This document shows positions 28,690 to 55,750 of a stretch of DNA of 64,000 nt, in pieces. The DNA comes from Biomaibacter acetigenes (lineage in GTDB: Bacteria > Bacillota > Thermosediminibacteria > Thermosediminibacterales > Tepidanaerobacteraceae). The position numbers and the translations under genes are program-made. Numbering within the stretch: the stretch's first letter is position 1; each line of letters begins with the position of its first letter. Location: positions 3,162,001 to 3,226,000 of the forward strand of contig NZ_CP033169.1 of assembly GCF_003691585.1 (NCBI RefSeq), read 5' to 3'. The notes beneath the pieces were generated by a model that was not told the DNA's origin, searched no databases, and was given only the letters and a program-made list of their open reading frames with translations.

Positions 28690-28828
28690 CTGGAGGAATT
28701 TTATCAATAAAATGTCGAGCAGCCTTTCACAAATTACAGATACACTAGGGGATATCTGCAAAAAACAAACCGAGGTAGCCGGTTCCTTAAATCAGAACAA
28801 CATCAGGATGGCAGAGCTTTTGAATTAA
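28690..28828 (+). pseudogene. Internally deleted copy of the Rossmann-chemoreceptor gene
   Basis: The leader ACCCTGGAGGA...ATCAATAA and the last 37 codons of the gene at 30006-30797 are joined here, with everything between removed. The join keeps a 38-codon reading frame (ATG at 28712, TAA at 28828, ending NNIRMAELLN). Identity to the intact copy is high, so the duplication is recent. Confidence 0.85.
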
Positions 28829-28846
28829 AAAAAGGATGGATAAAAC

Positions 28847-29128
28847 ATGATTATCGGCACAATGATCGTAGAGATTTCCTTAGGCGATACATTTTCATTA
28901 AAAGATAAAAGGCAGATAGTGAAAAGCATAATCGAAAGGTTGAAAAACCGCTACAATATATCCATAGCGGAAGTGGACAGGCAGGATGATATAAGGCGGA
29001 CGGTAATCGGCATGGCTTGCGTTTCTACTACCAGCGAACATGTAAACCGCCAGCTAGACCATGTCCTCTCATTTATGGAAAAGGATGGCCGCTTCACCGT
29101 GGAAAATGTGGAGAAGGAAATGCTGTAA
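28847..29128 (+). CDS. DUF503 (YlxP-like) protein
   Basis: This 93-residue protein is typical of DUF503: SLKDKRQIVKSIIERLKNRYNIS, then IAEVDRQDD and a C-terminal helix. In Bacillus the gene ylxP sits in the nusA-infB operon; function is unknown. Here it follows a deleted chemoreceptor copy. Its stop codon TAA abuts the first repeat of the cassette array. Confidence 0.88.
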   Translation: MIIGTMIVEISLGDTFSLKDKRQIVKSIIERLKNRYNISIAEVDRQDDIRRTVIGMACVSTTSEHVNRQLDHVLSFMEKDGRFTVENVEKEML

Positions 29129-29148
29129 ATAAGTGAGTGCCGGGTACC
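29127..29148. repeat. Cassette-array repeat, left boundary copy
   Basis: A short copy (GTGAGTGCCGGGTACCTA) of the REP-like unit, lying between the DUF503 stop codon on the plus strand and the DUF2442 stop codon on the minus strand. It supplies the TAG stop of DUF2442. Confidence 0.7.
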
Positions 29149-29405
29149 TAATGTTTAGCTTTTCTACCTATAAGCAACCCTTCAACTGAAATATCTTCAT
29201 CTAAATCTTCCCAGTGAATACCGATTCCATTCCCTATCAGCCGCCATTTCGACCTCTGATTATCATTTGCTTTTTTGAGCTTTGGAAACCAATCCAGTGG
29301 AACTCCTATCTCTCTACCATCACTAAGTAAAACATAAAATTTATCATCATCGAACCATAGTTCCATAGCATTTGCTTTAATTAAATCATTATCTAAAATA
29401 CTCAT
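29148..29405 (-). CDS. DUF2442 protein, likely antitoxin-like partner
   Basis: This 85-residue protein has ALELWFDD-like N-terminus, LSDGREIGVPLDWFPKL and GIGIHWEDLDEDISVEGLL, the DUF2442 signature. It overlaps the DUF4160 gene by 17 bases. The pairing of DUF4160 with DUF2442 is widespread and looks like a toxin-antitoxin module, but biochemical proof is lacking as far as I know. Confidence 0.86.
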   Translation of the reverse strand: MSILDNDLIKANAMELWFDDDKFYVLLSDGREIGVPLDWFPKLKKANDNQRSKWRLIGNGIGIHWEDLDEDISVEGLLIGRKAKH

Positions 29406-29622
29406 TCCATTGCCTCCTCATCATTTCCAGGTTTCTTTCAATGATTTTGCTTATCTCTGAGAGTTCATATGCTTTAAAGCCATATGAACTTGCTAATGAA
29501 ATATGATCCAACCAGAATTTAGCATATTTATTATCTGACTCAACATGAATGTGCGGAGGTTCAGTTCCTTCATTGCTGAAAAAGAAAAATCTATATTTAT
29601 CTTCTTTAAGAACTGTTGGCAT
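29389..29622 (-). CDS. DUF4160 protein, likely toxin-like partner
   Basis: This 77-residue protein has the DUF4160 motif FFFFSNEGTEPPHIHVE with paired histidines, then KFWLDHISLASSYGF. The start is one of two adjacent ATG codons after AGGAGAAAG. Transcribed ahead of DUF2442. About 290 bases beginning at its start codon and running upstream recur at 33535-33820, next to a RAYT relic. Confidence 0.84.
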   Translation of the reverse strand: MPTVLKEDKYRFFFFSNEGTEPPHIHVESDNKYAKFWLDHISLASSYGFKAYELSEISKIIERNLEMMRRQWNEYFR

Positions 29623-29905
29623 CATCTTTCTCCTTTTTATAATGCATAGGAAAGCAAAAATATACCTTATTGTAGAGCTTTCCGTATGCATTTCAAGAAA
29701 GCTACCGCTATTTAATTGCTTACAATAAAAGCTTTTTTATAATTCAAAGGGGATAAAAAAATCGTGATTTCAACATTTTTATAATATCATTTATAAAATA
29801 TTTTGTAAATATGTGATATTAAAAAGTAATTCCTGATGTATCTATGATAACAGAAGGTGTCTTAATTTTCAATAAGTGAATATGTGAGTGCCTGGCACCA
29901 TGGCA
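29618..29905. repeat. 290-base direct repeat (copy 1), includes REP-like unit
   Basis: Nearly identical to 33535-33820. Both end in GTGAGTGCCTGGCACC. Copy 2 directly follows the stop codon of a RAYT C-terminal relic, so copy 1 probably marks the 3' end of another lost RAYT element. Confidence 0.85.
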
Positions 29906-30005
29906 CCATTTTCTTATGCTTGCGAAATATTCCCAACCCTGGAGGATTTTTATCAATAAATGTCGAAAAAATATCGAATAAATATCTTACAAGGGGGATT
30001 ATTTC

Positions 30006-30797
30006 ATGAAAGTTGGAATAGTTGGCGGCGGAAAAGCCGGCACTGTATTTTTAAAATCTCTGTTGGAGCTGGAGAATGTGACTGTCGTGGGTATATGCGA
30101 TATCAATTCCGACGCGCCCGGCCTTGTGCTGGCCCGACAACACGGCATACCTGTTTGTACAGACCTTGAATCGTTTTTTTCAAACGAAATGGACGTGTTG
30201 CTGGAGCTTACGGGAAATCAAAGCGTCAGAGAAAAGATAAAGGGCATGATGCATAAAAAAACTCATCTGGTGGATTCCGATGCTGCGAAGCTCGTGGCTA
30301 TGCTTTCAGAACACCAGCAGAGCCTTAACGCCAGACTTCAAAACTATATAGACCATATGCAAACCCTTTTAAAACATCTGGCAGGGAATATTTCGGAGAT
30401 AAATGACACTGTAAAATCCATTGACAGTACCTCAAAGAAAATGGCAGAATCCGTTTCCAATTCTATGGAAAGTATAAAGCGAACAGACCAGATAATAAAA
30501 ATCATCAACGATATAACAACACGCATCAAAATCCTTGGTATCAACGCATCTATCGAAGCCGCCCGGGCCGGGGATTACGGCCGCGGTTTTTCGGTCGTGG
30601 CGGAAGAAATAGGCAAATTAACCGCCTCCAGCAAAAATGCCACTTCTGAAATAACAGACATTATTGAAAAAATGAAAACGGATATCAGCAGCCTTTCACA
30701 AATTACAGACACGCTGGGGGACATCTGCAAAAAACAAACTGAGGTGGCCGGTTCCTTAAACCAGGACAACATCAGGATGGCCGAGCTTTTGAATTAA
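30006..30797 (+). CDS. Soluble fusion of NAD(P)-binding Rossmann domain and chemoreceptor signalling domain
   Basis: This 263-residue protein has no membrane helix. Residues 1-95 form a Gfo/Idh/MocA- or homoserine-dehydrogenase-like Rossmann fold (VGIVGGGKAGTVFL, VVGICDINSDAPG, DVLLELTGN). Residues 100-263 form a methyl-accepting signalling hairpin with the conserved tip INASIEAARAGDYGRGFSVV. The tip normally contacts CheA/CheW; the Rossmann part would then be the input, perhaps sensing NAD(H) or a metabolite. It has a ribosome site AAGGGGG. No chemotaxis genes are nearby. Confidence 0.86.
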   Translation: MKVGIVGGGKAGTVFLKSLLELENVTVVGICDINSDAPGLVLARQHGIPVCTDLESFFSNEMDVLLELTGNQSVREKIKGMMHKKTHLVDSDAAKLVAMLSEHQQSLNARLQNYIDHMQTLLKHLAGNISEINDTVKSIDSTSKKMAESVSNSMESIKRTDQIIKIINDITTRIKILGINASIEAARAGDYGRGFSVVAEEIGKLTASSKNATSEITDIIEKMKTDISSLSQITDTLGDICKKQTEVAGSLNQDNIRMAELLN

Positions 30798-30800
30798 AAA

Positions 30801-30848
30801 AAGGATGGTCGCTTCACCGTGGAGAATGTGGAGAAGGAGATACTGTGA
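30801..30848 (+). pseudogene. Tail fragment of a second DUF503 gene
   Basis: Encodes DGRFTVENVEKEIL and stop, matching the last codons of the DUF503 gene at 28847-29128. The join is at AAGGATGG, a sequence present both before the DUF503 start and near its end, so deletion between these short repeats explains it. Confidence 0.82.
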
Positions 30849-30851
30849 TTA

Positions 30852-31967
30852 CTAATAACTGTAATCCCAGTCGAAGGTAACTTTCCCCGATGAGCTAACA
30901 TCGAAAGAGGCCATTGTATCGCCGTCCTGATTTATCACTTCTCCAGAAACATCGTAATTATCGTAATAATCAAGAACATAATCAACGATATCCTCAATCC
31001 ATTCTTCGGCATCGTCCGTTTCTTTGACGTCTTCCCACTCATATCCATAATAAGAGGTATCTATCTCTATGGTAATGAAAATTTCCTCATCGTCTTCGTC
31101 GCCGTCGATGCTTATATCCGCCGTCATATTCCCAAAATTATCGTTATAATCGTCGAGATTGTAGCCGTAGATATCGTTTAAATCATTTTCAAGTTCGTCA
31201 AAATCCACCGAACTGTATCTGAAATCCACAGTCAACTTACTGCCGGATGATTTGAATTTAACCAGAGTATCACCTTTATCGATGTCCTCAATGGTGCCTG
31301 AAAAATCGGTATCGGGGTACTCATCTTCCACATAATCGTAGATATCGTTGAGCCAGTCTTCTATATCGTCCTGGTCGGTAGAGTTCCATTTGCTTTTATA
31401 ATCGGAAAGGTCTATCTCTATAGTCAATTCCAGTTCTTTTTCGTCGCCTACCACATCGTAATCGAATTCCATGCTCTTCCATTTAGAATATTCGTCGTAC
31501 AAATAATCTTCCAGGTCTCCCGACGGATCCGATTTGTTTTCTTCTTGCTGTTTCTTTAAGGTCGCTTCTAGATCGATGATCCTTATATGCAGATAAGAGT
31601 TTTGCTGGGTAAGTTGAGTTATCTGGCTGTCCTTTTGCGAAAGCTGACTTTTCAAATCGGCAATCTGCTGCTGCAGGACCTGATTCGCCTCCGCTTTACT
31701 GTTTATAACCACAGCATTTTTGGCGGCATCCCAGGATACGCTTGCCCCCAGGGCGGTGCTTACCAGTCTGATGGGCACATATGTAACATTATCATAAACA
31801 AAAGGCTCAGGGGTAGCCGCCTGCTGTTTCCCGTCCACGTATATCCTGATTCCGCTAAAGTACGCCTTTATGTTTTTCATGTTCCCGCCCGCCGCCATGG
31901 CCGCCGAAGTGAATATAAATACGCCAGCTATGAGGGCGGCAAATAAAATATAAAACTTCCTTTTCAT
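30852..31967 (-). CDS. Secreted stalk-domain protein with coiled coil and repeated acidic domain
   Basis: This 371-residue protein has a signal peptide (to about residue 26), a copper-amine-oxidase-N-like stalk domain (YVDGKQQAATPEPFVYDNV, TYVPIRLVSTALGASVSWD), and a coiled coil (about residues 95-145). Two related acidic domains then follow, each with a TIEIDxSxY strand, a DxxEDWxxDIxDYV helix and a closing SGKVTFD-like strand. Extracellular and probably wall-associated through the stalk. Function unknown. It convergently faces the Rossmann-chemoreceptor gene. Confidence 0.82.
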   Translation of the reverse strand: MKRKFYILFAALIAGVFIFTSAAMAAGGNMKNIKAYFSGIRIYVDGKQQAATPEPFVYDNVTYVPIRLVSTALGASVSWDAAKNAVVINSKAEANQVLQQQIADLKSQLSQKDSQITQLTQQNSYLHIRIIDLEATLKKQQEENKSDPSGDLEDYLYDEYSKWKSMEFDYDVVGDEKELELTIEIDLSDYKSKWNSTDQDDIEDWLNDIYDYVEDEYPDTDFSGTIEDIDKGDTLVKFKSSGSKLTVDFRYSSVDFDELENDLNDIYGYNLDDYNDNFGNMTADISIDGDEDDEEIFITIEIDTSYYGYEWEDVKETDDAEEWIEDIVDYVLDYYDNYDVSGEVINQDGDTMASFDVSSSGKVTFDWDYSY

Positions 31968-32149
31968 AACAAAACCTCTAGATTGTTAATTTTATTTTCA
32001 TTACATGATACTGTAATATCAGTTCTACATGTGAAATAAAAATCCTTCAAGATATATATATTTATCTCCAGACTAATTTGGTTCACATTTATGGCAAAAT
32101 AAAGTGTCTCACTATATTATGTATATTTGTAAGCCCGACCCCATTACTC

Positions 32150-32237
32150 CCATAAAAAAACACTCTCTGTCATTTCCGTAATAACAGAAAGTGTCTTAAT
32201 TTTCAATAAGTGAATATGTGAGTGCCTGGCACCATTT
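32150..32237. repeat. Cassette-array repeat copy b
   Basis: Minus-strand order: REP palindrome GGTGCCAGGCAC, then TATTGAAAATTAAGACAC, a hairpin covering the ribosome site, and ATGGGA of the transposase start. The REP part encodes the end of MazF. Confidence 0.85.
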
Positions 32238-32565
32238 CAACAAATCCTATTAAAATATCTACCACTTCCTCTACGATGTCTTTTGGTGCTTTTTCACGAA
32301 AAGATACATCTCTGGCATATATGTCTAAAGCTTTCACCTGTTCACACATAATAACACCTGTCGTTTTAGTTCTTTCATCAAGTTCTACATGAAGTGGAAA
32401 ATTTCTGTTTGTGTTAGTAATCGGACATACCATGGCTAATTTAGTGAATTTATTATAGGTATTATTGCTAACAACTAATGCAGGTCTTTTCCCTTTTTGC
32501 TCATGCCCTGTTTGAGGATCAAATTCTAAAAAAATAATATCGCCTTGTTCCGGTATATATCCCAT
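32203..32565 (-). CDS. mazF: MazF-type mRNA interferase toxin, copy 1
   Basis: This 120-residue endoribonuclease has the PemK/MazF fold: GDIIFLEFDPQTGHEQKGKRPALVVSN and MVCPITNTN. The start overlaps the mazE stop (TAATG). The last ten residues, MVPGTHIFTY, and the stop codon are encoded by the adjacent REP-like repeat, so the original C-terminus has probably been replaced. A nearly identical copy lies at 40787-41149. Confidence 0.92.
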   Translation of the reverse strand: MGYIPEQGDIIFLEFDPQTGHEQKGKRPALVVSNNTYNKFTKLAMVCPITNTNRNFPLHVELDERTKTTGVIMCEQVKALDIYARDVSFREKAPKDIVEEVVDILIGFVEMVPGTHIFTY

Positions 32566-32804
32566 TAAAACACCTCTTTACCTTGTGGCTTTCCGGTATC
32601 CCATTCGCTGCATTTATAATCCCCTTTATATTCTGCAATTCTTTCTTCCAGAGTTTTATGCTTTTTAACAGGTATAATAACCAGATTGCCATCTTTAACT
32701 TTTATTTCCACCTTGTCATTTTCATTTAATTTAGCCATTTCGAGAATAGCCTTTGGAAGTCTTACAGCCTGACTATTTCCCCACTTTTGTATTGTGGTAT
32801 ACAT
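32565..32804 (-). CDS. mazE: MazE antitoxin, copy 1
   Basis: This 79-residue AbrB/MazE-type swapped-hairpin DNA-binding protein has TIQKWGNSQAVRLPKAIL and ends with a flexible acidic tail that should neutralise MazF. On the minus strand it is preceded by TTGACA, 17 bases, TATACT (32824-32852). Confidence 0.93.
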   Translation of the reverse strand: MYTTIQKWGNSQAVRLPKAILEMAKLNENDKVEIKVKDGNLVIIPVKKHKTLEERIAEYKGDYKCSEWDTGKPQGKEVF

Positions 32805-32823
32805 ATCATCACCCCATATTTAA

Positions 32824-32852
32824 AGTATATACTATGTATCTACATCTGTCAA
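32824..32852 (-). promoter_or_regulatory. mazEF copy 1 promoter
   Basis: TTGACA and TATACT separated by 17 bases. The second copy has the same promoter at 41408-41436. Confidence 0.8.
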
Positions 32853-32919
32853 TGTATATTATCTAGTAAATATGTGAGTACCTAGTATCAATCGGCTGAA
32901 ATGATTTTATTCCTCTATT

Positions 32920-33065
32920 TTACCCAGCTGTATGACATGACAAATTGCACTTTCCAACTCTATCCTCGGTTTTCTTCCCATAAAAAAACACCTCCTGTTA
33001 TTTCCATAATAACAGAAGATGTCTTAATTTTCATTAAGTGTATAAGTGAGTGCCTGGCATCATTT
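32920..33065. repeat. Cassette-array repeat copy c (RAYT 5' relic)
   Basis: Contains REP palindrome, hairpin AACAGGAGGTG, start ATG and about 18 codons resembling the RAYT N-terminus (MGRKPRIELE, then QLVMSYS-like decayed). Confidence 0.85.
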
Positions 33066-33118
33066 TCATAATTCTGCTTCCAGCCGGGAAATAACAACCG
33101 ATAAGGTTGAATCTTTCA

Positions 33119-33490
33119 TTAAATTATCTTCCCTTCTTTTAATATCTTTTCCTTAAGCTCCGAAGTTATTTCTTTATCAGTAATTACACTTACGGCAAAC
33201 GGCATCGCAATTTTCTCAACTTCTATATACATAGTCCAGTAATTCAGAGCTTCGTTCCAGCCGTCTATAAATAAATCTATGTCAGAGTATTTATCAAAGG
33301 GACCTTCCCTGGAAAGAGAACCATACAAGTATACTTTCTTTATCGCATATTTATCTTTAAGAAATTTCGCTATTTTACCGGCCCTTTCCATAGCTTCTTC
33401 TTTCATTGTTTTCTCTTGGGCAATTGCCAATTCGCGCCTTTTTGCCCAGGTTTTCCGAATGTTATCTCTTTCAGTGTCAATAAGAGACAT
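33119..33490 (-). CDS. MNT-type nucleotidyltransferase, orphan antitoxin-like
   Basis: This 123-residue protein has the nucleotidyltransferase motif LYGSLSREGPFDKYSDIDLF (GS followed by DxD). Such minimal nucleotidyltransferases (MntA type) usually pair with a HEPN toxin and inactivate it by AMPylation. No HEPN gene is adjacent, so it may be an orphan or act in trans. Confidence 0.85.
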   Translation of the reverse strand: MSLIDTERDNIRKTWAKRRELAIAQEKTMKEEAMERAGKIAKFLKDKYAIKKVYLYGSLSREGPFDKYSDIDLFIDGWNEALNYWTMYIEVEKIAMPFAVSVITDKEITSELKEKILKEGKII

Positions 33491-33534
33491 GACATCATCC
33501 CCATTTTTTGATGAATTACAATATTTTCATCCTG

Positions 33535-33820
33535 CTGGCATCATTTTTCTACTTTTTATAATGCATAGGAAAACAAAAATATACCTTAGTGTGGGGCTTT
33601 CCGTAATGCATTTCAAAAAAGCCACCGCTATTTAATTGCTTACAATAAAAGCTTTTTTATAATTCAAAGGGGATAAAAAAATCGTGATTTCAACATTTTT
33701 ATAATATCATTTATAAAATATTTTGTAAATATGTGATATTAAAAAGTAATTCCTGATGTATCTATGATAACAGAAAGTGTCTTAATTTTCAATAAGTGAA
33801 TATGTGAGTGCCTGGCACCG
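33535..33820. repeat. 290-base direct repeat (copy 2)
   Basis: Matches 29618-29905. It includes a decayed start region of a DUF4160 gene (ATGATGCCAGCA, then stop) and ends in a REP-like unit right after the RAYT relic's stop codon. Confidence 0.85.
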
Positions 33821-34331
33821 TTAAAACTTGTATCGCTCTTTGATGTTGATTATAGCTGGTGTGGTGGAGTTTATATGTTCCGCAATTTCCTTCGGTAAAT
33901 ATCCGTTTTCAATGGCTTTTTTAATATATTCTATTTTATATGGAGTAAGGCTCCTCTTTCTGGACCCGCTTTTAATGAGTTCAATATCGACCTTGCTTGC
34001 TCCTGTTTCTATCAATATCTCCTCCAGCGTTTTTGTAAATGTCAGGATTTTCTCATCCTTTTTTACCGTCGGGCCTTCTCCAATAACTTCAATGTTTTCA
34101 TAATCGCCTGTTTCCTCATCCTTCATGAATTCTTTGTATTTATTAATGGCGATTTTTCGATCATTTGATATCATATTCAGAATAAAATCTATATCTACAA
34201 AATCTGTTTTGTTATTTCTGTAGTAACGATCGCTGCTCCACTTATAATCTTCTACTTTATTTGTCATGTTTGCCCTTAATGGATTTTGATGTATGTACCT
34301 TAAAATGCATATACCGATTCAAAAACTCAAT
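33821..34331 (-). pseudogene. C-terminal relic of a REP-associated tyrosine transposase (RAYT)
   Basis: The reading frame upstream of 34267 gives CILRYIHQNPLRANMTNK, followed by VEDYKWSSDRYYRNN, the conserved end of the RAYT/Y1 transposase catalytic domain, then a helical tail with an HTH-like end (YLPKEIAEHINSTTPAI). The catalytic HUH motif is missing. The relic stops at an IS21-family element at 34332; the N-terminal relic is on its far side. Confidence 0.82.
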
Positions 34332-34406
34332 TGTTCCGGACGGGTGGTTACAGCCCGTCCGGAGAATGGTTACAACCGTTCCGGTTGTAAGTTTCATCGA
34401 TAAATG

Positions 34407-35165
34407 TTATCTACCTTTTCCATTAATGCCGTATACCTCTCGCATGGAACGATCTGATCCGTCACCAATCTCTATGGTGTAAGAATCATGTACGATTCTA
34501 TCAAGGATCGCATCTGCCAGAGTTGCTTCTCCAATCTTGCTATGCCAACCGGCAGGCGAAAACTGGGAGCAAAAAATTGTGGATGCTCTTTTGTGGCGTG
34601 CATGGATGAGTTCAAGCAAATCTCTGGCTTCCGTTTCCGTAAGAGAAACAAGCATCCATTCATCCAGTATAAGAAGATCAACTTTGCGGTATTGGCTTAA
34701 CACTTTTTTATAGACGCCTTCACCTCTAGCAATTGCTAAATCGGTCAACAACTCAGGTAAACGGACATATTTTACCGTATAATACTGTTTACAGGCTTCC
34801 ATGCCGAAGGCACATGCCAGATAGAATTTACCGGCTCCCGAAGCACCCATAATAATTATGTTATGCTTATCCGTGATAAAAGTACAGGTTGCTAACCGAT
34901 CAATCAGTGCTTTATCCAGCTTTCTACCAGCGCTGTAGTTGATATCGGCTATACAAGCATAGCTTTGGTCAAAGTTGGCATTTCGAATCAGTCGTTTAAG
35001 ACGGTTGTTTTTACGGCTGGTATATTCGATATCAACGAGCAGACCTAATCGTTCCTCAAAGGAAAGATGGTCTAGTGAATGCTCTTTTAACTGCATACGG
35101 TAAGCATCCGCCATGGCCGTGAGCCGCATTTCAATCAGTTTGTTGATGGTTGTTTGATTTGTCAT
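34407..35165 (-). CDS. istB: IS21 helper ATPase IstB, Walker A altered
   Basis: This 252-residue AAA+ protein assembles on DNA and selects targets for IstA. The Walker A region reads GASGAGKFY (residues 107-115). The residue after the Lys is Phe114, where Ser or Thr normally binds magnesium. TTC could arise from TCC by one base change. Walker B LLILDEW is intact. ATP hydrolysis may be lost. It follows istA after 62 bases. Confidence 0.93.
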   Translation of the reverse strand: MTNQTTINKLIEMRLTAMADAYRMQLKEHSLDHLSFEERLGLLVDIEYTSRKNNRLKRLIRNANFDQSYACIADINYSAGRKLDKALIDRLATCTFITDKHNIIIMGASGAGKFYLACAFGMEACKQYYTVKYVRLPELLTDLAIARGEGVYKKVLSQYRKVDLLILDEWMLVSLTETEARDLLELIHARHKRASTIFCSQFSPAGWHSKIGEATLADAILDRIVHDSYTIEIGDGSDRSMREVYGINGKGR

Positions 35166-35227
35166 AATCTATTTCCTCCCATAATAGTCTGCTCCGCGGG
35201 TAAATCCGTATTGGGCAGAATCGATAC

Positions 35228-36706
35228 TCATTTTGTAGGCTGTTCATCGGTTACTTTGTCTTGACCGGTCGAAAGGATGGTCTTGACGCTTTTTAAGCTG
35301 GGTTTTGGCGTGTAAGATAGCGCCCTTTTACAGGCGGCTTCCAATCGCAAGACAGAATATTTATCTGCCAGTTTTAATAACGCAAGACAGCTTCTGTAAC
35401 CCTGTTGCTCCACTTTTTGGGAGGAAAGGATTGACTTTACTGTTATTGTTGTATTAGGGCCGATTTTCTGAGCCCAGGAAATAAATCGATCGGCATTCCA
35501 CTTTATATAGCTTTGATGGTCTTCCGGCATATGTGCCTCATTGGTACTGTATTGCCCGGGACGACCATAAAGCCTTGGATGAGAACAGATACGATGATTA
35601 TTGTAAAAAACTTCAATGACGTTACATGTTACCCTTACATCGACCTTGTGTTTTATATACTCATACGGAACTGAATAGTGCATTTTATCTACAGATATGT
35701 GATAATTAAACTGAACGGTGGCTATTTTCCAGACAGCCAGTTCATAAGGGGTAGCAGGTAACGGCATGAGAAAAGGTTTTTCTTCCTCAAGAAAGACGCT
35801 GTATCTGCTGCCTCCTTTCTTTTGGAAGGGTTTGGAGTTAAATGACTCAAGCTTTTCTTTAATGGCTTTATTCAGTTCTTGCAGACTGAAGAATTTTTGA
35901 TGACGCAGGGCAGCGATAATCCATGTAGATATATTTCCAACCGTACCTTCAGCGTTGGGTTTGTCTTTAGGCTTGCGGACACGTGCAGGGATCACCGCTG
36001 TATCATAATGCTCTGCCAATTCATGATAAGTTTTATTGATGACCGGAGTGTACCATGAAGGCTTTTCTACACCAGTTTTAAGATTATCGGGCACGAGGAT
36101 TCTGGTTACACCGCCAAAGAAACAGTACATGTTTACGTGAGCACTAATCCAGCTTTCCTGATCCTGCGATAAAAAAGCTTCTACATAAGCATACTGGCTG
36201 TAGGAAAGTACGGCTACAAATACATAGGCAGGAATGATTTCACCAGTATCCTGGTCAACAATCGAAGCAGTTTGACCAGCCCAGTCCACTTCAATCTGCT
36301 CACCCGGTTTTCTTGGAATATGCATGCTAGCTCTTTTGGTTTCCGCGAACTTTTGATAGTGATAGCAGAACTGAGAATACATGAGAGGAAGCTCATTGCT
36401 GCGTCTGCATTCCTCACAGTATTCGGTCCATAAAAGCTTAAGAGTAACGCCGTCTTTCATAAGTTCCTTATGGATATACTCCAGATCCGGATAGTGGCGT
36501 TCAGGGGATACTGCCGGCTTGGGAAAAAACATTTTTTCCAGCTCACCGTCGGTCATTTCTTGTTTTAGCGGCCACGTGATATTAAGCTCTTTTGCCCTGT
36601 CAAGAACTTTTGTAACTGTCTTGCGAGCACATCCACAACTGGCAGCTATACCGCTTTTACTGATCCCGTGACTGTAAAGTCGCAGGATTTCTCGATATTT
36701 GGTCAT
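35228..36706 (-). CDS. istA: IS21 transposase IstA
   Basis: This 492-residue DDE transposase has an N-terminal helix-turn-helix (LYSHGISKSGIAASCGCARK) and the catalytic residues in VDWAGQ, VPDNLKTG and KPNAEGTV, then a beta-barrel and C-terminal tail. The reading frame is intact. It starts 139 bases inside the right end. Confidence 0.95.
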   Translation of the reverse strand: MTKYREILRLYSHGISKSGIAASCGCARKTVTKVLDRAKELNITWPLKQEMTDGELEKMFFPKPAVSPERHYPDLEYIHKELMKDGVTLKLLWTEYCEECRRSNELPLMYSQFCYHYQKFAETKRASMHIPRKPGEQIEVDWAGQTASIVDQDTGEIIPAYVFVAVLSYSQYAYVEAFLSQDQESWISAHVNMYCFFGGVTRILVPDNLKTGVEKPSWYTPVINKTYHELAEHYDTAVIPARVRKPKDKPNAEGTVGNISTWIIAALRHQKFFSLQELNKAIKEKLESFNSKPFQKKGGSRYSVFLEEEKPFLMPLPATPYELAVWKIATVQFNYHISVDKMHYSVPYEYIKHKVDVRVTCNVIEVFYNNHRICSHPRLYGRPGQYSTNEAHMPEDHQSYIKWNADRFISWAQKIGPNTTITVKSILSSQKVEQQGYRSCLALLKLADKYSVLRLEAACKRALSYTPKPSLKSVKTILSTGQDKVTDEQPTK

Positions 36707-36845
36707 ATGATGACCCCCTTGTATAATGTATTTACACCATTAAAGTTGTATAAATACATTATACAGGATGGATTTTTGGGGGGTAACCAATGACCGGAGC
36801 ATGTGTAACCATTTGTCGGAACGACTGTAACCTCTCACCGGAACA

Positions 36846-37065
36846 GGTGGGAATTTTGCTCCGGATTATTCATAAAAGGGAGAGGAGATATTTATCATCT
36901 TCGAAAATGTATTTTTTGTTATTCCCCCGCTGTATGACGTGGTAAACCGCACCTTCATACTCTATCCTCGGTTTTCTTCCCACAAAAAAACACCTCCTGT
37001 TATTTCCATAATAGCAGGAGGTGTCTTAATTTTCAATAAATGAATAAGTGAATGCCTAGCACCAT
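36846..37065 (-). pseudogene. N-terminal RAYT relic with its REP and hairpin leader (copy e)
   Basis: Minus strand: REP-like GGTGCTAGGCATTC, leader, hairpin 36991-37023, then GTG start at 36983 and GRKPRIEYEGAVYHVIQRGN, NKKYIFEDDKYLLSLL, an in-frame TGA, and IIRSKIPT up to the IS21 end. This is the standard RAYT N-terminus, damaged by a nonsense change and cut by the insertion. Confidence 0.85.
36991..37023 (-). promoter_or_regulatory. Hairpin sequestering the RAYT ribosome-binding site
   Basis: Fourteen-base arms CACCTCCTGTTATT and AATAGCAGGAGGTG (one G-U pair). The minus-strand right arm holds AGGAGGTG, exactly seven bases before the start codon. The same hairpin recurs in copies c, f, h and j. 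Confidence 0.8.
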
Positions 37066-37073
37066 TTCTGGTG

Positions 37074-37361
37074 TTACTTTTTTACGATTTTAAGTTCCAG
37101 TCCTAGACTGTCAACATATTTTAAAAAGTTTCTTAATGCAGGCGAATGACCTACAGTCTCAATCCTTGATATCATCTGTTGTGTTAGACCGGAGCGTTTA
37201 GCTAATTGTTGTTGAGATATATTCATTCTTTTTCTGTAACTAACTAGATTCTTTATAACTTCATATTCCAATTGGGATTTAATATAGTCTGCTTTAAGTT
37301 CTTCATCATTTGCTATTCTTTTATTTATTTCTTTGTTAACATTTATTTTTTTAAAGGGCAT
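37074..37361 (-). CDS. HTH antitoxin of a HigBA-like pair
   Basis: This 95-residue XRE-type protein has the helix-turn-helix NISQQQLAKRSGLTQQMISRIE. It is the second gene, 22 bases after the toxin gene, the toxin-first order usual for HigBA. It probably binds the palindrome in the shared promoter. Confidence 0.9.
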   Translation of the reverse strand: MPFKKINVNKEINKRIANDEELKADYIKSQLEYEVIKNLVSYRKRMNISQQQLAKRSGLTQQMISRIETVGHSPALRNFLKYVDSLGLELKIVKK

Positions 37362-37383
37362 TTAGATTACTCTCCTTTCCTTT

Positions 37384-37728
37384 TTATAATAATTTTCTGC
37401 CTGTGACCTTTTCAAGTTCTTTCAATCTTCTTATAGCTTTACCAATCTCAAACTTTTCGGCTTTCCCTTTTTGTTTTTTACAAGCATGAAGCAGATATAT
37501 ATTATTCCCATCAGTTACTACAAACATAATACGATTATTTTTGTGTTTAATTTCCCATAATTTACCGATTAGTTGCCTAATATCAAGGATATATAATGCC
37601 TTTAAACCTTCTTTTTCAAGCCTTTGTAAGATTGTTAACCATTCTGCCCTTTCCTTTTTTGGCAATTCATCTATATAACTTAATATTAAGTCTTTTCCTC
37701 CCGCAGTTTCATAAGTATGTACATTCAT
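37384..37728 (-). CDS. RelE/HigB-type toxin
   Basis: This 114-residue protein has the phage-derived Gp49-like/HigB fold: LILSYIDELPKKERAEW, IGKLWEIKHKNNRIMF, NIYLLHACKKQKGKA. Such toxins cut mRNA on the ribosome. Ribosome site GGAGAA lies before the ATG. Confidence 0.9.
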   Translation of the reverse strand: MNVHTYETAGGKDLILSYIDELPKKERAEWLTILQRLEKEGLKALYILDIRQLIGKLWEIKHKNNRIMFVVTDGNNIYLLHACKKQKGKAEKFEIGKAIRRLKELEKVTGRKLL

Positions 37729-37780
37729 AACATTTCTCCTTTTGGCAGATTATACATCCTATTTGATGTGACTATTATTT

Positions 37781-37809
37781 ATTATACATCAAAATTGATG
37801 TAATCTCAA
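37781..37809 (-). promoter_or_regulatory. HigBA promoter with operator in the spacer
   Basis: TTGAGA (37804-37809) and TATAAT (37781-37786) are 17 bases apart. The spacer is filled by the perfect palindrome ACATCAA-AA-TTGATGT (37786-37801). A further half-site CACATCAAAT lies downstream. This fits autorepression by the antitoxin. Confidence 0.82.
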
Positions 37810-37844
37810 TTAAAAAAAGGTGAAAAATTTATATGAATCAATAT

Positions 37845-38041
37845 TGAATGTTCAACGGTTTCTTGTCTTCTGCTTTCTCAAAAATTTATTTTTTATTGTT
37901 CCCCCGCTGTATGACATGGTAAACCGCACCTTCATACTCTATCCTCGGTTTTCTTCCCACAAAAAAACACCCCCTGTTATTTCCATAATAGCAGAAGGTG
38001 TCTCAATTTTCAATAAGTGAATATGTGAGTGCCTGGCACCA
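37845..38041. repeat. Cassette-array repeat copy f (RAYT 5' relic)
   Basis: REP, hairpin, and about 38 codons of RAYT start (GRKPRIEYEGAVYHVIQRGN, NKK, stop, IFEKAEDKKPLNI) before fading into the promoter of the HigBA-like pair. Confidence 0.85.
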
Positions 38042-38941
38042 TTAGTATTTATTCAAATCTTCAAGTTTTTCTATTGTAAATATATCATCAAGAATTTTGT
38101 CCAGTGTTTCCTTATTTGCTTTAAGTATCTTTTCTTCCGCCTCTTTTGATAATGTCCCAAATTTCTTTTTCAAAAGTCTTATTGCTGTATCCGCCTTGCC
38201 CTCCTTTAGACCTTCTTTAATTCCTTCTTTAATTCCTTCTGTCAAGCCCTTTTTCTTGCCTTCTTCAAGTATTAATCTGTAGAAGGATGATTCTTCCAGG
38301 TTCAGCATCCTTACCACCTCCTCAAAGGCTTTTTTTACTTCTTGTTCGTTAAACATCAAACCCGAGAAAATGCCCGCATAAAATGCTATATCTTTTTTCC
38401 TGTTTATGTTCATCGGCATTTTTAGTATTGCATCAGCGCATTCTTTTATATATTTTTCCCCTTGCTTTTGTCTTCTATTTCTATCTACCAGAGGTAAGAG
38501 TGAATATAAATCATAATATCCTGTGTTGATTATTTCCTCAAATTTTATTTCTCCAAGATCTATTAGTTTATATCTGTAATCCAGCCTGTTTGTATCTTCA
38601 TATTCGTATGTTAGTTTTTGCTGCATCCTGGGTTCTTTTTTACCCATATATATTACTATCTGGTAAGGGGGAAGTTCGTATTTTTCCATGATTTCTATGG
38701 AGTATCTGAGCATCCTGTACGGCAGTTTGCTGTCATTGCCCGATTGAAATTCTATATGTACTGGCATGTCTCCGGTGTCGGTCTGGCATTTGAATATCAT
38801 ATCGCTTTGTCTTTTTTCTACTATAGTGAATTCCAGGTTGAGTTCCTCTATTTTCTTTAGTTTCAGCTTCAGGAAGTATTGTATTATATCATCTGCCAGA
38901 TTGGAGAATATATGTTTTATGGTTATATCATATTGCCCCAA
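38042..38941 (-). CDS. Rpn-family recombination-promoting nuclease (PD-(D/E)XK)
   Basis: This 299-residue protein has the Rpn/transposase-31 nuclease core VEKRQSDMIFKC, VHIEFQSGND and MLRYSIEIM, where Asp, Glu and Gln form the PD-(D/E)XK site. After residue 215 come repeats of EGIKEGIKEGLKEGK and a DUF4351-like end. Such enzymes nick DNA and promote recombination. The start is TTG after AGAGGTG. Its TAA stop is directly followed by a REP-like unit. Confidence 0.88.
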   Translation of the reverse strand: MGQYDITIKHIFSNLADDIIQYFLKLKLKKIEELNLEFTIVEKRQSDMIFKCQTDTGDMPVHIEFQSGNDSKLPYRMLRYSIEIMEKYELPPYQIVIYMGKKEPRMQQKLTYEYEDTNRLDYRYKLIDLGEIKFEEIINTGYYDLYSLLPLVDRNRRQKQGEKYIKECADAILKMPMNINRKKDIAFYAGIFSGLMFNEQEVKKAFEEVVRMLNLEESSFYRLILEEGKKKGLTEGIKEGIKEGLKEGKADTAIRLLKKKFGTLSKEAEEKILKANKETLDKILDDIFTIEKLEDLNKY

Positions 38942-39049
38942 TTTATCACCTCTTTCTGCCTTGATTATACATTATCTTGCTTTTAACTTCAATATTTATG
39001 CGGTGTTGATCAGGAAGATTTGTTTGCGATTTCTCAGTATCCCACTCTG

Positions 39050-39123
39050 ATAAAAAAAATTGTCGCTATCATCGCAGGTAATGTCTTAATATTCAATAAG
39101 TGTTTAAGTGAGTGCCTGGCACC
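39050..39123. repeat. Cassette-array repeat copy g (short)
   Basis: GTGAGTGCCTGGCACC and the conserved TCTTAATATTCAATAAGTG leader, with the hairpin decayed. It directly follows the stop of the RAYT deletion relic. Confidence 0.7.
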
Positions 39124-39716
39124 GTTAAAACTTGTATCGTTCTTTTATGTTGATTATAGCTGGTGTGGTGTAGTTTATATGTTCCGCTATTTCCTTAGGT
39201 AAATATCCGTTTTCAATGGCTTTTTAATATACTCTATTTTATATGGTGTGAGGTTCCTCTTTCTGGACCCGCTTTTAATGAGTTCAATGTCGACCTTGCT
39301 TGCTCCTGTTTCTACCAATATCTCCTCCAGTGTTTTTGTAAATGTCAAGATTTTCTCATCCTTTTTTACCGTCGAGCCTTCTCCAATAACTTCAATATTT
39401 TCATAGTCGGCTGTTTCCTCATCCTTCATGAGTTCTTTGTATTTATTAATGGCAATTTTTCGATCATTTGATATTATATTCAGAATAAAATCTATATCTA
39501 CAAAATCTGCTTTGTTATTTCTGTAGAAACGATCGCTGCTCCACTTATAATCTTCTACTTTCTTTGATATGTTCGTCTTGTATGACATGGTAAACCGCAC
39601 CTTCATACTCTATCCTCGGTTTTCTTCCCATAAAAAAACACCTCCTGTTATTTCCATAATAGCAGAAGGTGTCTTAATTTTCAATAAGTGAATATGTGAG
39701 TGCCTGGCACCATTTT
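39124..39716 (-). pseudogene. Internally deleted RAYT (miniature element) with repeats at both ends
   Basis: The first 17-18 codons of RAYT (start at 39633, GRKPRIEYEGAVYHVI) are joined out of frame to the C-terminal part VEDYKWSSDRFYRNN found also at 33821-34267. REP-like units lie on both sides. The central catalytic part is absent, so it could only move in trans. Towards the end one base is lost from a T-run (near 39224), breaking the last helix. Confidence 0.83.
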
Positions 39717-39721
39717 CCTTT

Positions 39722-40611
39722 TTAAATCTTTTTATATACCTCATCTAATGAATCACTTTTAATTACTGCTACAAGAAGGCTATCCAGCTTCTTTTCATCA
39801 TTTATGCTTGCTATCTTATCTTTCAGGTCATCGGGTATTGTTTCAAACTTGGCCTTTATGGCATCCAATATTGACTCCTGTGCCTTTCTTATTCTGCCTT
39901 CTATTCTACCTTCTATTCTACCTTCCTCAATCAATGCTGCACCTATTCTGGTCATCCTGACCACCTCCTTTAATCGGTCTATATATTCTTTTCTCACATA
40001 CTTATCTGCCAGCCCAAGCACCGATGCAATGACAATAGACTGCATTTCTTCATCTTTTATTTCTTCAGCTAACTCCAGGACTTTTCTTGCTGCCTCATCT
40101 TCACCCCACTTGTTCTTCATTAAGGGTAAAAAGATTAGATCCATTATGTCTTTATTATCAAGCGGTATGTCATTTTCTATTTTATATTTTATGGCTTCAT
40201 ATCTTTTATCTCCATCATATTCTACCATGAATACCTGTTCTACTTTGTAGTATATGGAACCTATATCAATACTTTTATCAGCCTTATGAATGTTACCTGA
40301 ATATATTACTACCGTATGTATTTTCTTTTTTCTTTGAGGTATAATGCTGAATCGTATATGAGAAATCTCGGAAGATCTGCCAGTTTATTTGTTGTTTGAA
40401 ATTCTATATGTAAAAGAGAACCATCTTCGAGTTCAAATACATAGTCCATTTTTCTATCGGATAGATGTATTATGGGCAGTTCTGTGGGCTTTACGTTAGT
40501 TATCCTTGGCAGCTTAAGTCCATAGTATTCTAATGTCTCGTTTCTAAAAAATTCTGCCATGTATTTATATATAATGTCCTGATTTTGGTGTGGGATCTTT
40601 GCATCGCTCAT
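39722..40611 (-). pseudogene. Rpn-family nuclease with a -1 frameshift
   Basis: Two overlapping frames together make a 296-residue Rpn-type nuclease. Part one (40611-40309) carries KMDYVFELEDGSLLHIEFQT and RFLIYDSALY. Part two, shifted by -1, reads VVIYSGNIHKADKS, then continues to EEGRIEGRIEGRIRKAQ and the C-terminal helices. The shift is needed at an A6-G tract (minus strand; 40326-40331), resembling the slippery A-AAA-AAG. It could be mutation, sequencing error or programmed shifting. Confidence 0.85.
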
Positions 40612-40717
40612 TTAGCAACCCCCTTCTGATTTAATTATATCATAATTTATGATGGCATTGTTAATAAAATATTTTCTTTATTTATATTTAATAAAGGTCC
40701 TGATCCTAAAGTTTCTT

Positions 40718-40816
40718 ACAAACTCTATCCTCGGTTTTCTTCCCATAAAAAAAACACCTCCTGTTATTTCGAAGATGTCTTAATTTTCAATAAGTGAATA
40801 AGTGAGTGCCTGGCAC
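40718..40816. repeat. Cassette-array repeat copy i
   Basis: REP unit, hairpin shortened by a deletion of one arm, and the start ATGGGAAGAAAACCGAGGAT of RAYT. Overlaps the 3' end of mazF copy 2. Confidence 0.85.
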
Positions 40817-41149
40817 CATTTCAACAAATCCTATTAAAATATCCACCACTTCCTCTACGATGTCTTTTGGTGCTTTTTCACGAAAAGATACATCTCTGGC
40901 ATATATGTCTAAAGCTTTCACCTGTTCACACATAATAACACCTGTCGTTTTAGTTCTTTCATCAAGTTCTACATGAAGTGGAAAATTTCTGTTTGTGTTA
41001 GTAATCGGACATACCATGGCTAATTTAGTGAATTTATTATAGGTATTATTGCTAACAACTAATGCAGGTCTTTTCCCTTTTTGCTCATGCCCTGTTTGAG
41101 GATCAAATTCTAAAAAAATAATATCGCCTTGTTCCGGTATATATCCCAT
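40787..41149 (-). CDS. mazF: MazF-type mRNA interferase toxin, copy 2
   Basis: Almost identical to copy 1, including a repeat-encoded end (MVPGTHLFTY, one change). The two copies sit about 8.6 kb apart in the same orientation and context. Confidence 0.92.
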   Translation of the reverse strand: MGYIPEQGDIIFLEFDPQTGHEQKGKRPALVVSNNTYNKFTKLAMVCPITNTNRNFPLHVELDERTKTTGVIMCEQVKALDIYARDVSFREKAPKDIVEEVVDILIGFVEMVPGTHLFTY

Positions 41150-41388
41150 TAAAACACCTCTTTACCTTGTGGCTTTCCGGTATCCCATTCGCTGCATTTA
41201 TAATCCCCTTTATATTCTGCAATTCTTTCTTCCAGAGTTTTATGTTTTTTAACAGGAATAATTACCACATTGCCATCTTTAACTTGTATTTCCACTTTGT
41301 CATTTTCATTTAATTTAGCCATTTTGAGAATAGCCTTTGGAAGTCTTACAGCCTGACTATTTCCCCACTTTTGTATTGTGGTATACAT
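41149..41388 (-). CDS. mazE: MazE antitoxin, copy 2
   Basis: Differs from copy 1 at a few residues (LKMAK for LEMAK, IQVKDGNVVI for IKVKDGNLVI). These lie outside the acidic tail, so cross-neutralisation is likely. Same promoter at 41408-41436. Confidence 0.93.
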   Translation of the reverse strand: MYTTIQKWGNSQAVRLPKAILKMAKLNENDKVEIQVKDGNVVIIPVKKHKTLEERIAEYKGDYKCSEWDTGKPQGKEVF

Positions 41389-41499
41389 ATCATCACCCCA
41401 TATTTAAAGTATATACTATGTATCTACATCTGTCAATGTATATTATCTAAGTAAATATGTGAGTACCTAGTATCAATCGGCTGAAATGATTTATTCCTC

Positions 41500-41646
41500 T
41501 ATTTTACCCAGCTGTATGACATGACAAATTGCACTTTCCAACTCTATCCTCGGTTTTCTTCCCATAAAAAAACACCTCCTGTTATTTCCATAATAACAGA
41601 AGATGTCTTAATTTTCAATAAGTGTATAAGTGAGTGCCTGGCACCA
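41500..41646. repeat. Cassette-array repeat copy j, right boundary
   Basis: Same content as copy c, about 8.58 kb away. It joins directly to the intron-like fragment at its far side. Confidence 0.85.
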
Positions 41647-47128: not shown

Positions 47129-47815
47129 TTACTTGAAATAAATTGCAGCAAAACCTATGATAACTGTCGCTATTAATGCAAAAGCCCATCTCTGTAAGCC
47201 ACTGATTTCTCGGTGAATTGCATCGAACTTAGAATCTATTTTGTCAAATCTTGCATCGGTTTCTTTTTTTGCTGTATCAAACCTTGCATCTATTTTGTCA
47301 AATCTTATATCGGTTTCTTTTTTTGCTGCGTCAAACCTTGCATCTATTTTGTCAAATCTTGCATCGGTTTCTTTTTTTGCTGCATCAAACCTTGCATCTA
47401 TTTTGTCAAATCTTGCATCGGTTTCTTTTTTTGCTGCGTCAAACCTTGCATCTATCTTATCTGCGAGGTCTTCAATTACTTTATAAACCGCATCGAATTT
47501 AGCATCAATTTTGTCAAATTTAGCATCGCTTTCCTTGCGAGCTGCTTCAAATCTGGCATCGCTTTCTTTGCGGGCAGCTTCAAATCTGGCATCCATTGTA
47601 TTAGATAAATCTTTGATTTCTTTGTGGACCTCTGCAAATTTGCTATCTACTCTATCAAATTTTGCATCCATGCTGTCCTTTAAAGCGCTAATTTGCTGCG
47701 ATAGGAAAAAATAACCCGATTCATATATTTTAGGTTCGTGCGGGGGAATATTATCCTCACTTGCGGCTATCTCATTTTTTGTTTTGTTTGCTATATACTC
47801 TTCCGCCATGCTCAT
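47129..47815 (-). CDS. Repeat-rich coiled-coil protein with C-terminal membrane anchor
   Basis: This 228-residue protein has a long charged helix built from near-exact 18-residue (54-bp) repeats of the type FDKIDARFDAAKKETDAR, about four copies between residues 125 and 200, preceded by related units (FEAARKESDAR). The C-terminus is one membrane helix (WAFALIATVIIGFAAIY). It resembles DUF1640/CCDC90-like anchored coiled coils. AGGAGG lies seven bases before the chosen ATG. The DNA repeats may vary in number between strains. Confidence 0.82.
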   Translation of the reverse strand: MSMAEEYIANKTKNEIAASEDNIPPHEPKIYESGYFFLSQQISALKDSMDAKFDRVDSKFAEVHKEIKDLSNTMDARFEAARKESDARFEAARKESDAKFDKIDAKFDAVYKVIEDLADKIDARFDAAKKETDARFDKIDARFDAAKKETDARFDKIDARFDAAKKETDIRFDKIDARFDTAKKETDARFDKIDSKFDAIHREISGLQRWAFALIATVIIGFAAIYFK

Positions 47816-51761: not shown

Positions 51762-51793
51762 CCATAAGTAAATAAGTGAGTGCCTGGCACCTA
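51762..51793. repeat. REP-like repeat at the chemoreceptor stop codon
   Basis: Copy of AAGTGAGTGCCTGGCACCTA. Its minus-strand TAG is the stop codon of the chemoreceptor gene. Unlike the array copies it has no RAYT sequence beside it. Confidence 0.8.
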
Positions 51794-55718: not shown

Positions 55719-55750
55719 CCATAAGTGAATAAGTGAGTGCCTGGCACCTA
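55719..55750. repeat. REP-like repeat at the SLH stop codon
   Basis: Same short repeat as at 51762. Its minus-strand TAG ends the SLH protein gene. No RAYT sequence is attached. Confidence 0.8.

What the first reader, a model, noticed from the sequence alone, without database searches (positions are those of the whole stretch)
29127..41646. Cassette-like array of toxin, nuclease and antitoxin genes bounded by one-orientation REP/RAYT relics
Seen in sequence: DUF4160/DUF2442, mazEF, an MNT gene, a HigBA-like pair, an Rpn nuclease, a frameshifted Rpn and a second mazEF lie on the minus strand. Each is separated from the next by the same unit in the same orientation: GGTGCCAGGCAC palindrome, a conserved leader, a hairpin over a ribosome site, and the first codons of a RAYT gene. 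Stop codons abut or fall within the unit. The layout resembles an integron cassette array, but the joining sequence derives from a REP/RAYT element. Inference: a RAYT acting at these repeats, or recombination between them, may capture and move small self-maintaining genes. I know of RAYTs moving REPs, not of RAYT-bounded gene cassettes.
Basis: partly seen in the sequence, partly recalled or inferred. Interest (0 to 1): 0.92.

Follow-up and report, generated by a model that had tools for sequence, protein, structure and literature searches.

The report
REP-bordered cassettes of toxin–antitoxin genes
A run of small toxin–antitoxin genes in this bacterium is cut into gene-sized pieces by copies of one short palindrome left by an old "REP/RAYT" transposon, and in related bacteria the same pieces turn up in other orders with their edges at that palindrome, which suggests a so far undescribed route by which such genes spread.

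Summary
Eleven copies of a 28-nt REP (palindrome GGTGCCAGGCAC plus two 8-bp iterons) lie at 29133-41645, all minus strand (chance 0.2). They separate mazEF twice, MNT, HigBA-like, two Rpn genes and DUF4160/DUF2442. Most start a 5'-anchored RAYT fragment. The genome has no intact RAYT; intact relatives exist in G005, G139 and G040.

Interpretation: partly supported. In relatives the same genes lie beside the same DUF503 gene in other orders, 93-96% identical where nearby core DNA is 77-86%. Of 49 homology-block ends, 22 fall at a REP (1.7 expected). mazEF is duplicated as a REP-bounded unit, and its native extent in REP-less relatives ends flush at the REPs. REP clusters with Rpn, NTase, Abi_2 or antitoxin genes recur in other Bacillota families; 10 of 47 Rpn genes end at a REP (about 65-fold enrichment).

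Not shown: that RAYT itself moves genes. Recombination between direct REPs in a TA hotspot explains much. The array is a relic, not integron-like, and its single orientation is expected because REPs follow gene and replication direction throughout this genome. New variant of the RAYT/REP (TIRYT, subclass 2.1) kind.

The parts
29133..29148 (-). REP at the 3' end of DUF2442 (TAG stop shared with the REP); leads directly into the DUF503 end
29148..29691 (-). DUF2442 (29148-29405) and DUF4160 (29389-29691) pair; cassette between REP 29899 and REP 29148, 93% identical in G004 with different neighbours on both sides
29884..29899 (-). REP; G004 homology begins exactly at its first base; preceded by a stuttered ATGGTGCC
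32218..32233 (-). REP fused to the end of mazF copy 1; homology to REP-less mazEF of G002/G007 stops at 32234-32236
32203..32804 (-). mazF (32203-32565) and mazE (32565-32804), copy 1
32865..32890 (-). degenerate REP' (GATACTAGGTACTCACATATTTACT) on the 5' side of mazEF copy 1
33046..33061 (-). REP starting a leader plus RAYT 5' fragment (18 codons); truncates a HepT-like gene that is intact in G004
33119..33490 (-). MNT-type nucleotidyltransferase (antitoxin-like); its HepT partner is cut off by the REP
33804..33819 (-). REP directly after the stop of a RAYT C-terminal fragment
33821..34267 (-). RAYT C-terminal fragment, 52% identical to the intact RAYT of G005
34407..36706 (-). IS21-type istB/istA inserted in the RAYT relic
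36890..37063 (-). REP (37048-37063), leader, ribosome-site hairpin and RAYT 5' fragment (start GTG at 36983)
37074..37728 (-). HigBA-like pair: HTH_3 antitoxin (37074-37361) and Gp49/HigB-like toxin (37384-37728)
38025..38040 (-). REP 2 nt after the Rpn stop; starts a leader plus RAYT 5' fragment (24 codons)
38042..38941 (-). Rpn nuclease (TIGR01784/PF04754/DUF4351), 93% identical in G004
39108..39123 (-). REP between the deleted RAYT and the Rpn leader
39124..39711 (-). REP (39696-39711) plus an internally deleted RAYT, N-terminal 18 codons joined to the C-terminal part
39722..40611 (-). frameshifted Rpn gene
40802..40817 (-). REP fused to the end of mazF copy 2; starts a leader plus 8 RAYT codons
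40787..41388 (-). mazF (40787-41149) and mazE (41149-41388), copy 2; the duplicated block runs from about 8 bp before REP 41645 to about 46 bp into REP 40817
41450..41475 (-). degenerate REP' before mazEF copy 2
41630..41645 (-). REP at the outer edge of the array
51776..51791 (-). solo REP forming the TAG stop of an MCP gene; absent at the orthologous sites of G001, G004 and G009
55733..55748 (-). solo REP forming the TAG stop of an unrelated gene

Best explanation
This is a toxin-antitoxin hotspot next to a DUF503 gene that was colonised by a RAYT-type HUH transposon and its REPs and then reshuffled in REP-bounded pieces. The REP is a 12-bp palindrome followed by two 8-bp iterons; the RAYT (Y1 core plus an HTH-like C-terminal part, closest to subclass 2.1/TIRYT) probably nicks at it (inferred). 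New copies start at the REP and end at variable points downstream, so they often carry only part of the RAYT and sometimes the next gene (seen in sequence; the one-ended mechanism is inferred). They land at gene 3' ends, often supplying the stop codon. Once small self-maintaining genes sit between direct REPs, whole REP-gene-REP units are duplicated, lost and exchanged between genomes, by RAYT action or by recombination between REPs (which one is not shown). In this genome the RAYT is dead and the array is a relic.
For: 13 same-strand REPs against 0.21 expected. All ten units aligned begin at the REP and lose RAYT similarity at variable points. Homology-block ends coincide with REPs 22/49 against 1.7 expected. 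mazEF in REP-less G002/G007 corresponds to 32234-32853, flush between REP' and REP. The DUF4160/2442 block in G004 runs from REP base 1 to 23 bp into the next REP, with other neighbours. mazEF is duplicated as a REP-bounded unit. Cassettes are 93-96% identical where core DNA is 77-86%. A G139 RAYT pair, 99.6% identical, starts at the REP and carries the first codons of the neighbouring comM-like gene. Clusters with Rpn, NTase, Abi_2, RelB/YafQ, ThsB-TIR or HepT genes occur in G144, G139, G270 and G005. 10/47 Rpn matches abut a co-oriented REP, p about 7e-16.
Against: There is no intact RAYT in G000, nor a clear one in G001 or G004. No recombination product was observed, only comparisons between species; no strain pair showed a single clean gain or loss. 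Several block ends (33542, 39021, 38912, 39833) are not at REPs. REPs also abut many ordinary genes, so insertion at stop codons followed by ordinary recombination accounts for much of the pattern. The Rpn figure treats paralogues as independent and uses an estimated gene count.
Confidence: 0.6

Rival explanations
1. Decayed insertions in a TA hotspot. REP/RAYT copies inserted at gene 3' ends in an island already rich in TA genes; afterwards ordinary homologous recombination between the repeats, plus deletions and horizontal transfer of the island, produced the mosaic. RAYT never moved a host gene.
For: REPs also sit at stops of housekeeping genes. A solo REP insertion at an MCP gene end is absent at the orthologous sites of three relatives. 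No intact RAYT here. Some breakpoints lie outside REPs. IS21, a 110-bp repeat and duplications show a generally unstable locus.
Against: It does not by itself explain the Rpn-REP enrichment in several families, nor the G139 RAYT copy that begins at the REP and carries flanking DNA. Shared bases 5' of the REP in the mazEF duplicate are not expected from REP x REP recombination.
Confidence: 0.32
2. REPs are kept at these 3' ends by selection, as stop codons, terminators or mRNA stabilisers for TA operons, and mobility is secondary.
For: REPs supply stop codons (VPGT*, VPGTHLFTY*, GARHLSC*) and abut stops. REPs in other species lie mostly downstream of coding regions (PMC3733652).
Against: The palindrome is short and weak as an RNA hairpin (-4.4 kcal/mol). 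REPs cut genes (HepT at 33061) and come with RAYT 5' fragments of no evident use.
Confidence: 0.06
3. An integron-like array built by a site-specific recombinase acting on the palindrome.
For: Layout only: small genes, one orientation, repeated joining sequence.
Against: No tyrosine or serine integrase was seen among the array ORFs scanned. The repeats begin RAYT fragments, and solo copies are scattered in the genome in the direction of genes and replication.
Confidence: 0.02

Closest known systems
REP/RAYT (REPtron) systems
   Same: HUH Y1 transposase with Y---NP motif (NF047646 match just under cut-off), short palindromes in many copies, 3'-of-gene location.
   Different: REPs in the array are single-orientation and border TA genes; the palindrome begins GGTGCC without a GTAG/GTGG foot; the RAYT has a long C-terminal HTH-like extension.
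TIRYT / TnpA subclass 2.1 (RAYT group 1)
   Same: Same domain plan: Y1 core plus C-terminal HTH-like part; in G040 the RAYT is flanked by inverted copies of the repeat.
   Different: [quoted passage not shown] here a palindromic repeat precedes them and two 99.6% identical RAYT copies lie 4.7 kb apart in G139.
Rpn toxin-antitoxin genes (RpnL/RpnS)
   Same: The Rpn genes here belong to TIGR01784/PF04754, which move horizontally by an unknown route (PMC10327210).
   Different: That paper found no inverted terminal repeats flanking rpn genes; in these Bacillota about a fifth of Rpn matches end at a REP.
Mobile insertion cassettes / passenger-gene ISs (from memory)
   Same: Transposon ends carrying passenger genes instead of a transposase.
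   Different: Those have terminal inverted repeats of DDE elements; here borders are direct REPs of an HUH element, shared between neighbours.
Integron cassette arrays
   Same: Several small genes, many TA, in one orientation with a recurrent joining sequence.
   Different: No integrase seen; joints derive from a transposon end plus transposase fragments.

Membership tests
RAYT (class 2 TnpA Y1) | Y1 HUH core with HxH and Y---NP motifs | tested here: met
   Intact relatives: NHYH and RYIHxNP, PF01797 3e-13 to 5e-10, NF047646 74-75 bits against cut-off 80. The window copies lack this core.
RAYT (class 2 TnpA Y1) | intact gene in the genome of the array | tested here: not met
   PF01797 gives only two IS200 TnpAs in G000; RAYT C-terminal search gives fragments only.
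TIRYT / subclass 2.1 | C-terminal HTH or DnaA_C-like extension | tested here: inconclusive
   About 120-residue conserved extension, only weak HTH-type hits; no tree was built.
TIRYT / subclass 2.1 | flanking terminal inverted repeats, often GGGGWSAS | tested here: inconclusive
   G040 RAYT flanked by inverted copies of the GGTGCCAGGCACTTA repeat; GGGGTCAG repeats beside Rpn genes in G012; array units have direct repeats.
Canonical GTAG REP | GT[AG]G foot 5' of the hairpin | tested here: not met
   Bases before the palindrome are TA, AAT, TAAC etc..
Integron cassette array | integrase gene with the array | tested here: not met
   No integrase among the array ORFs scanned.
Integron cassette array | attC sites | not tested
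   No attC model was run; the joints seen are REPs with RAYT fragments.
Mobile gene cassette bounded by REPs | same gene in different contexts with junctions at the repeat | tested here: met
   22/49 block ends at REPs against 1.7 expected; DUF4160/2442 and mazEF blocks.
Mobile gene cassette bounded by REPs | movement catalysed by RAYT | not testable with these tools
   Needs biochemistry or strain-level events.

The most novel reading that the evidence does not exclude
RAYTs of subclass 2.1 are active one-ended (rolling-circle-like) transposases: they start at a palindrome-plus-iterons origin (the REP), run through downstream DNA and stop at another REP or at random, and so package neighbouring toxin-antitoxin and defence genes, Rpn above all, into REP-bounded cassettes that spread between genera.
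Probability: 0.25. Interest if true: 0.9.

Novelty: new variant of a known kind. Interest (0 to 1): 0.72.

Why it matters
RAYTs are widespread but thought domesticated, with no evidence of own mobility, and subclass 2.1 was thought to lack REPs. How Rpn and other TA genes hop between genomes is open. A repeat that ends Rpn genes in several families, borders reshuffled TA genes here and starts duplicated RAYT copies elsewhere ties these questions together and gives a concrete, testable end sequence. The literature searches made here found no description of REP/RAYT-bordered TA gene arrays.

Tried and rejected
One orientation as proof of replication-coupled insertion: rejected as proof, because nearly all REPs are co-directional with the upstream gene and genes favour the leading strand. 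Phage carriage: no exact REP match in 2.9 million viral contigs. A full-length RAYT at C1:146002, next to a REP: it is an IS200-type TnpA, not a RAYT. REP as RNA terminator: weak hairpin. PADLOC gave only weak hits for the window proteins. Integron reading rejected.
Full report
What is there. The window lies at 3,162,001-3,226,000 of a single-contig 3.40-Mb genome (G000). Named records of related contigs carrying the repeat are Tepidanaerobacteraceae/Thermoanaerobacterales MAGs. GGTGCCAGGCACTCAC occurs 13 times in the window, always on the minus strand (0.21 expected), 11 times within the stretch reported. The consensus is the palindrome GGTGCCAGGCAC, then TCAC(T/A)TATTCACTTATTG, i.e. two 8-bp iterons (ACTTATTC ACTTATTG). 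In other families the iterons read AACTTATT AACTTATTG or AAGTTATT AAGTTATTG. The palindrome-plus-iterons reading is mine; it recalls origins of HUH replication proteins.

Units. After the REP comes a leader, a strong hairpin covering the ribosome-binding site (z about -3.6) and the first codons of a RAYT (MGRKPRIEYEGAVYHVIQRGNNKKY). All ten units aligned begin at the REP and lose similarity at variable points between 56 and 174 nt. RAYT 3' fragments also occur, ending in a stop directly before a REP: 33821-34267 (52% identical to the intact RAYT of G005) and an internal-deletion copy at 39187-39606. An IS21 sits in the first relic. No intact RAYT remains in G000: PF01797 finds only two IS200-type TnpAs.

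Genes between REPs: DUF4160/DUF2442, a copper-amine-oxidase-N protein, mazEF, MNT nucleotidyltransferase, HigBA-like pair, Rpn, frameshifted Rpn, mazEF. Stops abut or enter the REP: MazF runs on as ...GFVE|MVPGTHIFTY*, while MazF of REP-less G002 and G007 ends ...GFVEIL* and ...GFIE*.

Are these cassettes that move? (a) Order: in G004, another genus, the locus next to the same DUF503 gene holds the same DUF4160/2442, mazEF, MNT (with intact HepT partner) and Rpn genes in a different order. (b) Identity: 93-96% for these genes, against 86% for DUF503 and 77-85% for 46-57.5 kb. (c) Edges: of 49 ends of homology blocks with relatives, 22 lie at a REP; circular shifts of the REP positions give 1.7 on average and reach 22 in 0.08% of shifts, the scale expected for shifts of almost zero. 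mazEF of G002 and G007 matches 32234/32236-32853, flush between REP' and REP. The DUF4160/2442 block in G004 starts at the first base of one REP and ends 23 bp into the next. (d) Duplication: the two mazEF units of G000 match from about 8 bp before the REP to about 46 bp into the following REP unit. Some edges are not at REPs (33542, 39021, 39833), so deletions and other recombination also act.

Elsewhere. The exact core GGTGCCAGGCACTYA is rare: 11 of 300 phylum genomes. Where present it often forms same-orientation clusters. G144: seven REPs with RAYT fragments, a DUF2281 antitoxin-like gene joined through a REP to a RAYT tail, an Rpn and an NTase pair whose last codons are the REP (VPGT*). 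G139: two 99.6% identical RAYT copies plus Abi_2/AbiD, RelB-YafQ and a ThsB-TIR-like gene. G270: Rpn and HepT-MntA genes. G005: intact RAYT with DUF4258, MqsA-like antitoxin, Abi_2 and NTase genes. In G040/G157 the repeat forms classical inverted REPINs around ordinary genes, so the TA association is not universal.

Rpn. In 15 genomes 10 of 47 Rpn matches have a co-oriented REP at the end of the gene, against about 0.3% of genes carrying any REP (p about 7e-16; 5e-7 if only five are counted, one per family). The gene number is estimated from genome size and paralogues are not independent. In G012 two Rpn paralogues at different loci share sequence to about 53 bp past the stop, just beyond the REP, while a third without the REP diverges at its stop. 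[quoted passage not shown] this is a candidate vehicle in these Bacillota.

How new copies form. The second G139 RAYT copy begins at the REP and ends inside a copy of the first codons of the comM-like gene that follows the first RAYT: one precise end, one variable end, with flanking DNA carried along (the comM name is from memory). Together with the 5'-anchored fragments of the array this favours one-ended transposition from the REP; progressive deletion cannot be excluded. Short tandem stutters ending in GGTG before the G139 REPs look like repeated strand switching (inference).

Orientation. In G000 all REPs up to one mismatch are + at 0.15-1.01 Mb and - at 2.55-3.25 Mb with dnaA at 349: one direction relative to replication. 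This fits lagging-strand insertion known for IS200/IS605, but REPs are also co-directional with the gene they follow, so the two causes cannot be separated. Either way the single orientation of the array is no special feature of it.

Against the literature. [quoted passage not shown] it notes that in some E. coli the REPtron locus was replaced by a TA operon. PMC3733652 describes TIRYTs with terminal inverted repeats. None of the papers found describes RAYT/REP-bordered TA arrays.

Verdict. A real, decayed REP/RAYT-bordered TA array of a new variety. REP-bounded shuffling is shown by comparison; RAYT catalysis of it is a hypothesis.

Noticed in passing
window 29635-29745 and 33555-33665: A roughly 110-bp dispersed, MITE-like repeat with many further copies in the genome and its relatives; in the array it sits between the REP leader and the gene in two cassettes.
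   Followed up: no
L181 (G139) upstream of REPs at 4887, 9550, 13253, 7317: Short tandem 'stutter' repeats, each ending in GGTG, directly before the REP (e.g. GGTGAGCGAAAAGC), as if insertion had been tried repeatedly.
   Followed up: partly
L201, L208, L219 (G012): Rpn genes have the repeat ACACAAGGGGTCAGTCCCTCTG (fits the TIRYT motif GGGGWSAS) upstream and, in two of three, a REP (one degenerate) downstream.
   Followed up: partly
window 28718-29131 and 30687-30851: Complementary partial duplicates of an MCP-like gene and DUF503: one copy lost the first gene, the other most of DUF503.
   Followed up: no
L096 24-236 (G001): A group II intron reverse-transcriptase-like N-terminus reads into a REP (name from memory, not scanned).
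   Followed up: no
window 47219-47580: Tandem 54-bp repeats, not examined further.
   Followed up: no
L190-L192 (G040), L187-L188 (G157): Large secreted-looking proteins in series, several followed by a REP, beside a RAYT: a cassette-like row that is not TA genes.
   Followed up: no
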